Positions 3,233-5,728 of a stretch of DNA of 7,679 nucleotides are shown piece after piece (the stretch's first letter is position 1; every line of letters starts with the position of its first letter). A model generated the notes under the pieces. That model was not told the DNA's origin. It worked only from the letters and a program-made list of their open reading frames with translations, and ran no database searches. Both the position numbers and the translations under genes were made by a program. The DNA is taken from assembly GCA_035288405.1 (NCBI GenBank), contig DATEAK010000168.1:1-7679 (forward strand), written 5' to 3'. The stretch comes from JACPSX01 sp035288405 [NCBI: bacterium] (GTDB lineage: Bacteria > JACPSX01).

Positions 3233-3278
3233 AAGCTCGCTCTCTCCTTTTACCACGGAGAGAGAAGGAAGGGTGCGG

Positions 3279-3794
3279 ATGAGCAGGGAAGAGATCCCAA
3301 TGAACAGAGACCGCTGGCCGTTGCAGGCGATCCTGGTTCTGGTGCTGTCCGGGTTGGGGGTGAGTTCCTATCTCTCCTATCTGGATGTGCAGATCTCCAA
3401 AGCCCCCAATAAGTCCTTTTGCAGCATCTCCCAACTCTTTTCTTGTGATGTGGTCATTCGCAGTCCTTATGCACGCTTCCTCGGTGTTCCCGTGGCGTAT
3501 CTGGGTGTGGCCGGATTTCTGCTGTTCTTGATCCTGACGATATGGGCTCTCGTTCGTCTGGATCAGCCGTCGGCGCGCCGGCCGATTTTGGGATTGATGG
3601 GCCTGTCCTGGGTCGCCTTGATCTTTGAGTGTTACCTGACTTCCGTGGAAGCTTTCGTCCTCAAGACATTTTGCCCGTACTGCCTGACGGTTTTCGCGCT
3701 CATCATCGCGATTTTTTTGTTATCCTTGCGGGTGGCCTCCGGGGGTCCGAACACCCGGAAGCCGGGTACCCGGGTGGCTGTCCTCGAACACTAA
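3279..3794 (+). CDS. Vitamin K epoxide reductase (VKOR) family membrane thiol oxidoreductase
   Basis: A 171-residue integral membrane protein with about four transmembrane helices. Both redox pairs of bacterial VKOR are present: loop cysteines C48 and C56 within FCSISQLFSCDVV, followed by the conserved S-x-Y-A and GVPVAYLG segments, and the active-site motif C132-P-Y-C135. Bacterial VKOR takes electrons from a periplasmic thioredoxin-fold partner and passes them to quinone, replacing DsbB in disulfide formation. C118 is an additional cysteine. I chose ATG 3279 because AAGGAAGGG (3265-3273) precedes it by 5 bases; ATG 3300 (giving MNRDRWPLQ) and GTG 3273 are possible. The downstream gene begins 11 bases after the stop, so the two are almost certainly cotranscribed. 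That partner has a UPYC motif encoded by nearly the same 12 bases as this CPYC (TGC versus TGA, then CCG TAC TGC in both). Confidence 0.9.
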   Translation: MSREEIPMNRDRWPLQAILVLVLSGLGVSSYLSYLDVQISKAPNKSFCSISQLFSCDVVIRSPYARFLGVPVAYLGVAGFLLFLILTIWALVRLDQPSARRPILGLMGLSWVALIFECYLTSVEAFVLKTFCPYCLTVFALIIAIFLLSLRVASGGPNTRKPGTRVAVLEH

Positions 3795-3805
3795 AGGAGG
3801 ATTTG

Positions 3806-4396
3806 GTGGCAGCAAAAAAGAACCGCAAACAAGGATCCCAGGGAAAGAGGGCCTCCAAGCGCAAATTTCCCCTTTGGACTCTCGGGGTTTTGGTCCTTGT
3901 CGTTGTGGGCATTGTCGCGTTCCAGTCCGGGTGGTTTTCCGGTTCCGGGTCCGAGGGAGGTGGACAGGGGGCTGCTATAGGGACAAAGGCGCCTGCCTTT
4001 CAGCTTTCCGACCTATCCGGGAAGCGCTACGCTCTGGCGGACTACAACGGCAAGAAACCCGTTCTGGTGGAATTTATCTGGACCGGCTGACCGTACTGCG
4101 AAACTTTCGCCTCGACCGTGGGTCGAGCCTATGAGAGCTACAAGGATCAGATGGAGTTTTTTTCCATTGCAGCCGATTCCCGGGACACTCCGGATCTCGT
4201 GCAACGCTTTGCCCGGTCCCATTTCAGCAACTGGCCCTATCTCTTAGGGAGCCGCAGCAACATGAGTGCGTACAACGCCGACAGCTATCCCACCACGTTC
4301 TTGATTGACCGGCAGGGCATTGTCCGCAAACGGATTGATGGTGCCGTGTCCTACGATGAGCTTCGGGCGGATATCGTCAGCGTCCTGGGGAAATAA
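3806..4396 (+). CDS. Membrane-anchored thioredoxin-fold selenoprotein (TlpA/redoxin-like) with in-frame UGA = selenocysteine
   Basis: Read through one in-frame TGA (4088-4090), this frame gives a single 196-residue protein with no other interruption. The N-terminus is basic (KKNRK, KRASKRK), followed by one membrane helix (about 21-40), a Gly/Ser linker, then a thioredoxin/AhpC-type fold: IGTKAPAFQLSDLSGKRYALADY, the strand KPVLVEFIWTG, then Sec95-P-Y-C98, and the cis-proline loop SYPTTFLID (Pro162). The TGA falls exactly at the first cysteine of the CxxC site. C98 is the only cysteine in the protein, so without Sec there would be no redox pair. A hairpin fitting a bacterial SECIS follows the TGA. 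The start GTG 3806 has AAAGGAGG (3793-3800) 5 bases upstream, overlapping the VKOR stop. Probable role: periplasm-facing thiol-disulfide exchange, perhaps with VKOR. A premature stop or sequencing error is the alternative. Standard gene calling would give a truncated protein ending at 4090 plus a fragment from 4118. Confidence 0.85.
4088..4090 (+). other. Selenocysteine codon (recoded TGA)
   Basis: This TGA lies between GGC and CCG-TAC-TGC and replaces the first cysteine of a CPYC-type active site. TGA ends other genes in this window (1044, 2899, 3132), so the organism does not use TGA as a sense codon in general. Local recoding to selenocysteine is the best explanation. Confidence 0.82.
4111..4127 (+). 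promoter_or_regulatory. Candidate bacterial SECIS hairpin
   Basis: CTCGACC (4111-4117) pairs perfectly with GGTCGAG (4121-4127), leaving the loop GTG. The loop starts 27 bases after the TGA, within the range usual for bacterial SECIS elements bound by SelB, and carries the expected G then U. A second small inverted repeat, GCGAAA/TTTCGC (4098-4110), lies between it and the TGA and could stack on the main stem. All of this lies in translated sequence, as is normal for bacteria. Confidence 0.7.
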
Positions 4397-4403
4397 TGTT
4401 TTC

Positions 4404-4540
4404 TAGCAGGCTGCTGAAAAACCCTCCGTTCACCCTTCGACGCGCTCAGGGCGAACGGAGCACGCATTGAAATTCTGGAAGTTTCTCCGTTCGTGGTGAG
4501 CTTGTCGAACCACGAAAGGGACTTTTTCAGCAGCCTATTA
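4404..4540. mobile_element. MITE-like palindromic element with terminal inverted repeats
   Basis: The element fills the gap between the convergent selenoprotein and thiolase genes. AGGCTGCTGAAAAA (4408-4421) and TTTTTCAGCAGCCT (4523-4536) are perfect 14-bp terminal inverted repeats, extendable to 18 bp (TAGC/TAAT ends) with two mismatches. The 6-bp word GTTTTC flanks both sides (4398-4403 and 4541-4546), as a target-site duplication would. Inside are hairpin A (CTCCGTTC 4424-4431 with GAACGGAG 4453-4460, plus CCCT/AGGG) and hairpin B (TTCGTGGT 4490-4497 with ACCACGAA 4509-4516). Their 11-base loops, TCGACGCGCTC and the complement of GAGCTTGTCGA, differ at two positions. It encodes no protein. 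It would also be a natural bidirectional end point for transcription. The right end carries the TAA stop of the thiolase. Confidence 0.65.
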
Positions 4541-5728
4541 GTTTTCCCGCCGAATAATCATCGCCATCGTCACGCCGCCGCCTCCGCAAATCGAGGCGAT
4601 GCCCAGTTCTTTGTTCAGACGGCTCAGTGCATTGTAGAGGGTGACAATGATCCGGGCTCCGCTGATCCCCGTGGGGTGACCCAGGGCAATGGCTCCGCCA
4701 TGAATGTTGAGCTTGCTGCGATCCCACTGGAGGACCCGCTCATTGGCCAGGATTTGCACGGCGAAAGCCTCGTTCACCTCGATCAAGTCCATGTCCTTGA
4801 GCGTCATGCCCGCGTTCTTGAGAGCCAGCGGAATGGCGATACCCGGCCCTTCTCCCATCGTCTCGGGATCAACGGCCGCGTTGGAATAAGCGACCAGGGA
4901 GAAGAGGGGTTTTAATCCCAGGGATTTGGCCTTCTCCCGTGACATGACGACGAGGGCCGTGGCTCCGTCCGTCATACCGCAGGCGTTTGCGGCAGTTACT
5001 GTGCCGCCCTTCTTGAAGGCACCGGAAAGAGTACCCATCTTCTCCAGCGTGGTGTCGCGGCGGATGCTCTCGTCTTTCTTGAAAGAGATTGCGGGCTTTT
5101 TCCCTTCGGCGGGAATCTCCACAGGGATAATCTCGTTATCGAACCAACCCTGATCCTGTGCCCGGGCCGCCTTCTGGTGGCTCTCGATGGCAAACTGGTC
5201 CTGCTCCTGGCGGCTGATTCCGTATTTCTCGACCAAGTTCTCGGCGGTCTGACCCATCCCCATGTTGCACAGGGGGTCGATGCTGTCGCTCCAGCCGTCT
5301 AGAATGGTTTTGTCCCCCATCTTGAATCCTTCCCAGCGGACTCCCTTCAGGAGGTAGGGAATGGTGCTCATGCTGTCCATGCCACCGGCCACCACGATTT
5401 CCGAATCACCGGCTCGAATGGTGAGGGAGGCCAGGGCAATGGATTTCATCCCCGAGGGGCAGGCCATGTTGAGGGTCTGGGTGGTAACCGAGCGGGGAAT
5501 CCCGCCTTTAATCGAGGCGGTCCGGGAAGGGTTCGGTCCGTTTCCTGCCTGGCGGCAGTTCCCATAGATCACTTCGCTGATCTGGTCTCCTTTTAAGTCC
5601 ACTCGCTTGAGGGCGCCGGCAATGGCGATGCCGCCCAGATCCCAGGCCGGGATGTCTTTCAGTGTTCCTCCAAAGCGCCCCATCGGGGTGCGCACACCGC
5701 TGACGACCACGATATCTTTCAGTTCCAT
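4538..5728 (-). CDS. Thiolase (acetyl-CoA C-acetyltransferase)
   Basis: A full-length thiolase of 396 residues. It carries the nucleophile in NMACPSG (Cys90), the NEAFA motif, the catalytic histidine in GGAIALGHPTGISGARI near the C-terminus, and the second cysteine in SICGGGGVTMA. The family condenses two acetyl-CoA into acetoacetyl-CoA, or cleaves 3-ketoacyl-CoA in the reverse direction. The frame opens at ATG 5740, but I choose ATG 5728 because GGAGG lies 5 bases before it, within the upstream ATG-GAGG codons; the protein then begins MELKDIVVVSGVRTP, as thiolases do. It lies downstream of the reductase gene on the same strand, and together they form the first two steps to 3-hydroxybutyryl-CoA. 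No polyhydroxyalkanoate synthase is in view, so polymer synthesis versus butyrate-type or degradative metabolism stays open. The TAA stop lies in the end of the adjoining palindromic element. Confidence 0.95.
   Translation of the reverse strand: MELKDIVVVSGVRTPMGRFGGTLKDIPAWDLGGIAIAGALKRVDLKGDQISEVIYGNCRQAGNGPNPSRTASIKGGIPRSVTTQTLNMACPSGMKSIALASLTIRAGDSEIVVAGGMDSMSTIPYLLKGVRWEGFKMGDKTILDGWSDSIDPLCNMGMGQTAENLVEKYGISRQEQDQFAIESHQKAARAQDQGWFDNEIIPVEIPAEGKKPAISFKKDESIRRDTTLEKMGTLSGAFKKGGTVTAANACGMTDGATALVVMSREKAKSLGLKPLFSLVAYSNAAVDPETMGEGPGIAIPLALKNAGMTLKDMDLIEVNEAFAVQILANERVLQWDRSKLNIHGGAIALGHPTGISGARIIVTLYNALSRLNKELGIASICGGGGVTMAMIIRREN

What the first reader, a model, noticed from the sequence alone, without database searches (positions are those of the whole stretch)
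3806..4396. Unannotated selenoprotein: membrane-anchored thioredoxin-like protein with a UPYC active site
Two ORFs in the same frame are separated by a single TGA at 4088-4090 with no other stop. The TGA is exactly where the first Cys of CxxC belongs (WTG-U-P-Y-C), C98 is the only cysteine in the whole protein, and the fold continues past the TGA to a proper cis-Pro loop and a natural end. TGA is a true stop for other genes in the window. Thioredoxin-fold selenoproteins are known as a class; this membrane-anchored form beside VKOR would be missed by standard callers, which would give a truncated protein and a fragment.
Basis: partly seen in the sequence, partly recalled or inferred. Interest (0 to 1): 0.92.

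Follow-up and report, generated by a model that had tools for sequence, protein, structure and literature searches.

The report
Selenocysteine redox protein beside VKOR
A TGA that looks like a stop codon most likely encodes selenocysteine in the active site of a membrane-anchored thioredoxin-like protein from an uncultured bacterium, a real but not unprecedented kind of protein that ordinary gene callers would cut in two.

Summary
In detail: window 3806-4396 is one frame with a single TGA (4088-4090); read as Sec it gives a 196-aa anchored TlpA/ResA-like protein with motif WTGUPYC. A Candidatus Tectomicrobia MAG (G001) carries a 77%-identical orthologue behind VKOR with the TGA at the same codon. 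The 101 codons after the TGA evolve as protein (dN 0.10, dS 0.51). Fourteen unchanged codons cover a hairpin that fits the published bacterial SECIS model. TGA ends 3 of 9 window genes. G001 encodes SelB, two SelD with Sec in their own active site, and two more UxxC TlpA-like proteins. SelA and tRNA-Sec were not found there, and no genome is held for the window. UxxC proteins of the AhpC/TSA kind are a known predicted selenoprotein family (PMC13188914), so this is a new member of a known kind. The unusual point is its place directly behind VKOR, which suggests a periplasmic selenenylsulfide carrier; that partnership is inferred, not shown.

The parts
3806..4396 (+). TlpA/ResA-like selenoprotein gene (196 aa, Sec95, stop TAA 4394-4396)
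4088..4090 (+). TGA read as selenocysteine (U95 of WTG-U-P-Y-C)
   Evidence: same TGA in orthologue L002; aligns with Cys in the three structure alignments shown
4111..4127 (+). candidate bacterial SECIS hairpin: 7-bp stem, GUG loop 27 nt after the TGA, -9.4 kcal/mol for the hairpin alone
   Evidence: also in the fold; identical in orthologue; 396 of 5074 tested positions also pass the model, 194 with as good an energy
4106..4147 (+). 14 successive codons (101-114) without any nucleotide change between window and orthologue, covering the hairpin
   Evidence: 0 of 14 codons changed, against synonymous change in 51 of 132 conserved degenerate codons elsewhere; run length reached in 156 of 20000 permutations
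3866..3922 (+). N-terminal membrane anchor (residues 21-39); redox domain taken to face the periplasm
   Evidence: hydropathy; helix 23-40 in the otherwise poor model
3273..3794 (+). VKOR-family membrane protein (Cys 50, 58, 120 and the pair 134/137 in FCPYC), same strand, 11 bases upstream
   Evidence: (PF07884, 2.9e-28); a VKOR gene also precedes the orthologue
3793..3800 (+). Shine-Dalgarno-like AAAGGAGG before GTG 3806
   Evidence: sequence; AAGGAGGAT kept in the orthologue

Best explanation
Window 3806-4396 is a bacterial selenoprotein gene. The ribosome reads UGA 4088-4090 as selenocysteine, directed by SelB and a SECIS hairpin at 4111-4127. The product is an inner-membrane-anchored, periplasm-facing TlpA/ResA-like thiol-disulfide oxidoreductase with Sec as attacking residue and Cys98 as resolving residue. 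Shown: conserved in-frame TGA, purifying selection after it, homology with Cys at that place, SelB and Sec-type SelD genes in a relative. Inferred: actual Sec insertion, SECIS function, topology, and that the neighbouring VKOR exchanges electrons with it (about 50% likely), most simply by re-oxidising the Se-S pair so that it can pass oxidising equivalents to exported proteins.
For: Orthologue at 77% identity over residues 1-196 with the TGA at the same codon (75% by tblastn, 78%). After the TGA: dN 0.101, dS 0.515 (Nei-Gojobori; 0.115 and 0.445 by YN00), 81 of 101 residues identical, differences by codon position 12/9/27. The three best structure alignments put Cys at U95. PF00578 E 4.6e-18 over residues 58-175. 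In G001: SelB over cut-off; two SelD over cut-off, each with one in-frame TGA, in a UxxK motif. Of six G001 matches, the orthologue, L005 and L006 have TGA in UxxC, L003 and L004 have CPPC. SECIS-like hairpin fits the four limits of the published model. TGA stops other genes. VKOR lies upstream in both genomes.
Against: SelA was not found in G001 with two models. No tRNA-Sec was found there: the 12 Rfam matches coincide with ordinary tRNAs (only 150 of 508 candidates were scored), one pattern gave 0 matches, the other 1, in a locus where ARAGORN finds no tRNA, and nothing lay beside selB or selD. The window's own genome is not held. Only two orthologues are known, and identical hairpins give no covariation. 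The hairpin model is met by 7.8% of tested positions, and the fold of 4085-4145 is no more stable than shuffles (z -0.33). The paralogue L005 has no hairpin under the same strict test. No test of function or of VKOR partnership was possible.
Confidence: 0.9

Rival explanations
1. The TGA is a true nonsense codon and the gene is a decaying pseudogene, or two separate genes.
For: SelA and tRNA-Sec not found in the related MAG.
Against: The same TGA in two genomes whose DNA here is about 84% identical, with dN/dS about 0.2 (0.26 by YN00) over the 101 codons after it; no other stop in frame; homology to ResA runs through the TGA.
Confidence: 0.04
2. The lineage reads TGA as an ordinary amino acid everywhere (altered genetic code, e.g. 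Trp or Gly).
For: An open frame through TGA alone would fit this.
Against: TGA ends 3 of 9 window genes; the orthologue's VKOR ends in TGA where the window's ends in TAA; the five in-frame TGAs examined in G001 (three TlpA-like, two SelD) sit at known Sec or redox-Cys positions.
Confidence: 0.01
3. Sequencing or assembly error in a Cys codon (TGC/TGT).
For: The window is a single record without reads.
Against: The same TGA appears in a relative's assembly that differs at about 16% of bases here.
Confidence: 0.01
4. It is a selenoprotein (so not exclusive with the main reading), but works as a reductase (ResA/CcmG-like, cytochrome maturation or disulfide reduction) fed by a CcdA/DsbD-type protein, with VKOR a chance operon neighbour.
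For: Closest solved relatives are ResA and the best NCBIfam match is ResA (71 bits, below its cut-off of 170); Sec pairs generally have a lower redox potential than Cys pairs (recalled).
Against: VKOR is directly upstream with 11 bases between in the window, and VKOR also precedes the orthologue. No CcdA/DsbD family was among the matches of the 9 window proteins scanned, but the window is short.
Confidence: 0.4

Closest known systems
Prx-like thiol:disulfide oxidoreductase selenoproteins (PF00578, UxxC/UxxU; Table 1 of PMC13188914; 'Prx-like protein, UXXC' in PMC1088965)
   Same: AhpC/TSA family by profile, Sec in the first position of UxxC
   Different: Membrane anchor and VKOR-linked gene order were not mentioned in the passages I saw; no listed member's sequence was compared here
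ResA / TlpA / CcmG(DsbE) periplasmic thiol-disulfide oxidoreductases
   Same: AhpC/TSA-type redox domain, position of active-site Cys
   Different: Sec instead of Cys; all 15 NCBIfam matches, ResA, StoA, DsbE, MauD and TlpA among them, are below their curated cut-offs
VKOR with a DsbA/Trx partner (Rv2968c-Rv2969c; cyanobacterial Trx-VKOR fusion; PMC3792642, passages seen)
   Same: VKOR gene next to a thioredoxin-fold redox gene
   Different: Partner candidate here is AhpC/TSA-like; PF01323 (DsbA) is not among its matches; it has Sec
UGC-containing TlpA selenoproteins and thioredoxin-like SaoT (PMC13188914, Table 1 passages); TlpA-named selenoproteins of algae (PMC7539508, passages)
   Same: TlpA-like or thioredoxin-like selenoproteins
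   Different: Motif here is UPYC, not UGC; SaoT and WAxxUGC models match only far below cut-off; algal sequences were not compared

Membership tests
Bacterial selenoprotein | in-frame TGA at a redox-Cys position, kept in an orthologue | tested here: met
   (one orthologue found)
Bacterial selenoprotein | protein-coding selection after the TGA | tested here: met
Bacterial selenoprotein | SECIS hairpin 16-37 nt after TGA, loop 3-9 nt with G in first two places, stem 4-16 bp, MFE at most -7.5 | tested here: met
   against the model in PMC13188914; weak alone, 396 of 5074 positions pass
Bacterial selenoprotein | SelB and SelD in the genome | tested here: met
   in relative G001 only:
Bacterial selenoprotein | SelA and tRNA-Sec in the genome | tested here: inconclusive
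   not found in relative MAG G001, a draft of unstated completeness; the window's own genome is not held
Bacterial selenoprotein | Sec shown in the product | not testable with these tools
   needs 75Se or mass spectrometry
AhpC/TSA (PF00578) UxxC selenoproteins | PF00578 over its cut-off and UxxC | tested here: met
   (65.8 bits, cut-off 26)
ResA proper (NF002854) | score over curated cut-off | tested here: not met
   71 bits against 170
VKOR (upstream neighbour) | PF07884 over cut-off, CxxC and two loop Cys | tested here: met
VKOR redox partner (DsbA-like function) | electron exchange with VKOR | not testable with these tools
   only gene order is known

The most novel reading that the evidence does not exclude
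A VKOR-driven periplasmic oxidation pathway in an uncultured bacterial lineage whose disulfide carrier is a membrane-anchored selenoprotein: VKOR re-oxidises the Se-S pair of a TlpA-like UPYC protein, making quinone-linked oxidative protein folding depend on selenium.
Probability: 0.33. Interest if true: 0.6.

Novelty: new member of a known kind. Interest (0 to 1): 0.38.

Why it matters
Standard annotation cuts such genes at the TGA, so envelope redox proteins of uncultured lineages are missed or filed as fragments. In the related MAG, TGA stands at the Sec or redox position in three TlpA-like genes (the orthologue among them) and in two SelD genes, suggesting broad use of selenium in redox proteins there. 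If the VKOR link is real, selenium would enter the pathway that makes disulfides outside the cell, which asks what Sec gains over Cys in an oxidising role.

Tried and rejected
Direct scan of genome contigs with the 196-aa protein found no relative; the scan with the upstream DRTGG protein gave the one useful locus. Class and phylum searches centred on G001 returned G001 alone, so wider conservation of the VKOR link could not be tested. Viral contigs gave nothing: protein alignment (its two patterns came from the N-terminal tail, so a weak test) and an exact DNA pattern for the WTGUPYC stretch (0 matches). In plasmid records 54 matched, all under 60% identity and none covering 80% of the query; 20 were listed, mostly annotated ResA or TlpA family. 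Rfam found nothing relevant in the window or in L023, L024 and L027. The structure model from the single sequence was poor (pLDDT 50.4, pTM 0.33); it was not used for a fold search, and only its N-terminal helix is mentioned. The first 262 bases of contig C175, before and into the start of selB (base 260), were translated in three frames; all carry stops and by eye I saw no SelA tail. One search was a wrong frame of L027; one search gave the right one. One of the six G001 matches, L007, covers residues 14-88 only, before the active site, and reads GVMCYPAC further on; I left it out of the UxxC/CxxC comparison. A global TGA reassignment and a sequencing error were considered and rejected (see rivals). 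Literature, judged from listings (titles, starts of abstracts): VKOR with selenoprotein, 35 papers, 15 listed, mostly ferroptosis or pharmacology; selenocysteine with vitamin K epoxide reductase, bacteria and disulfide bond formation, 3 papers, none with such a pair in its title; Tectomicrobia with selenoprotein, 0; Entotheonella with selenocysteine, 3, none opened; Sec-containing/TlpA/selenoprotein/periplasm, 10. PMC1794560 was seen only as a listing.

Full report
What is there. The window holds, on the + strand, an ATP-grasp gene (cut by the window's start), a DRTGG/AAA_26 gene, an ECF sigma factor and a zf-HC2 protein, a VKOR-family gene (3273-3794) and the finding (3806-4396); then, on the - strand, a thiolase and an SDR gene, and last a Phd/YefM antitoxin gene on the + strand. 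The finding is one frame interrupted only by TGA 4088-4090. It begins with GTG behind AAAGGAGG, 11 bases after the VKOR stop, and ends with TAA. Read through, it gives a 196-aa protein with nine K/R before a hydrophobic segment 21-39 and an AhpC/TSA-like domain over residues 58-175. Its only Cys-type positions are 95 (TGA) and 98.

Is the TGA sense? A scan with the upstream DRTGG protein led to L001, a contig of a Candidatus Tectomicrobia groundwater MAG (JACPSX010000087.1; 89% identity over residues 1-343). The genome behind it (G001) holds six matches to the 196-aa protein. The best is 77% identical over residues 1-196 and has one in-frame TGA, at the same codon (WTG-U-PYC). It lies behind the end of a VKOR gene, and the order on to thiolase and SDR is kept; the contig with the start of that VKOR overlaps this one by 141 bases. 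In G001 some 8 kb of other sequence lie between the zf-HC2 gene and VKOR. Between the two orthologues the part after the TGA has dN 0.101 and dS 0.515 over 101 codons (Nei-Gojobori; YN00 gives 0.115 and 0.445), and the 40 codons before it (residues 55-94) dN 0.064 and dS 1.09 (YN00 gave no value there). Differences by codon position after the TGA are 12, 9 and 27, and 81 of 101 residues are identical. So the downstream part is protein under selection and the TGA is kept. It is not a general code change: TGA ends 3 of 9 genes in the window and ends the orthologue's VKOR.

Is it selenocysteine? U95 aligns with Cys in the three best structure alignments (two of them ResA; best E 7.4e-15) and in the G001 paralogues L003 and L004 (WCPPC), while L005 (WUHSC) and L006 (WUPSC) also carry TGA there; the sixth match, L007, ends before the active site. 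G001 encodes SelB (370.6 bits, cut-off 242.25) and two SelD proteins over the cut-off, each with one in-frame TGA, in CAGUAGK and GAGUGCK; UxxK is the motif listed for selenophosphate synthetase selenoproteins in PMC13188914 and PMC9312934 (passages). Against this, SelA was not found with PF03841 or TIGR00474. For tRNA-Sec, the Rfam search (150 of 508 candidates scored) gave 12 matches, and all 12 lie on ordinary tRNAs by ARAGORN (Trp, Ser, Leu, Gly, Tyr, Arg, His, Thr or Phe). One pattern search gave 0 matches and a looser one 1, in a locus without a tRNA by ARAGORN. G001 is a draft in many contigs (numbers up to C263 seen, 2.9 Mb) and its selB begins 260 bases from a contig end, so I read these absences as probably incompleteness; this is inference, since completeness is not given.

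SECIS. The published bacterial model (PMC13188914, passages) asks for a 3-9 nt apical loop with G in the first two places, a 4-16 bp stem, 16-37 nt from UGA to loop, and at most -7.5 kcal/mol. Window 4111-4127 has a 7-bp stem, loop GUG, 27 nt and -9.4 kcal/mol, identical in the orthologue. Alone this is weak: of every third position on both strands of the window, 396 of 5074 pass the same test and 194 have as good an energy; of TGA triplets in any frame, 15 of 245 pass. The region of 61 nt is no more stable than shuffles (z -0.33). More telling is that codons 101-114, which cover the hairpin, show no nucleotide change, while 51 of 132 conserved degenerate codons elsewhere do (p about 0.001, chosen after seeing the run; 156 of 20000 permutations give as long a run). 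L006 and one SelD (L023) also have passing hairpins, L005 has none; the second SelD (L027) was not scored by that script.

How it likely works. The protein should sit in the inner membrane by its N-terminal helix, with the redox domain in the periplasm (positive-inside rule, inferred). Sec95 would attack or carry a bond to Cys98. The upstream VKOR has the CPYC pair (Cys 134, 137) and Cys 50, 58 and 120 in the 3273 reading. VKOR is proposed to act as a DsbB equivalent with DsbA or a fused thioredoxin partner, and in mycobacteria the two genes are linked (PMC3792642, passages). By that analogy the selenoprotein could be VKOR's partner. Its sequence relatives, however, are mostly ResA- or TlpA-type proteins, many of them reductases (function recalled), so a reductive role stays nearly as likely. 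No test here separates them.

What is known. UxxC AhpC/TSA-like thiol:disulfide oxidoreductases are listed as a predicted selenoprotein family in reviews of 2022 and 2026, and a Prx-like UXXC family in the Sargasso Sea survey (PMC9312934, PMC13188914, PMC1088965; passages only). TlpA-named selenoproteins are reported in algae too (PMC7539508, passages). The find is therefore a new member of a known kind. My searches for VKOR together with selenoprotein or selenocysteine, for Tectomicrobia with selenoprotein and for TlpA with Sec-containing selenoproteins listed no title on such an operon; only open-licence PMC papers were searched, and only 15 of 35 were listed.

Verdict. Observation confirmed; selenoprotein reading about 0.9; VKOR-coupled oxidising pathway about one in three.

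Noticed in passing
window 4397-4545: 149-bp intergenic stretch with terminal inverted repeats (4403-4421 / 4523-4541), 98.7% identical at the same place in G001 (L024 9818-9966) although the surrounding DNA is about 84% identical; partial copies in L011 and L031. Looks like a MITE/REP-type element; why it is more conserved than the genes is unexplained.
   Followed up: partly
L023 8406-9452; L027 (minus strand): Two SelD genes in one MAG, both with an in-frame TGA in a UxxK motif (CAGUAGK and GAGUGCK).
   Followed up: partly
L005 1501-2028; L006 1501-1974: Two further TlpA-like genes in G001 with UxxC (WUHSC, WUPSC) read through TGA.
   Followed up: partly
L001 about 5508-11986: Radical-SAM (NifB-like), two NifH-like and NifD/K-like frames between the zf-HC2 and VKOR genes in the relative, not in the window at that place; names are by eye from the translations, no profile search was run.
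   Followed up: no
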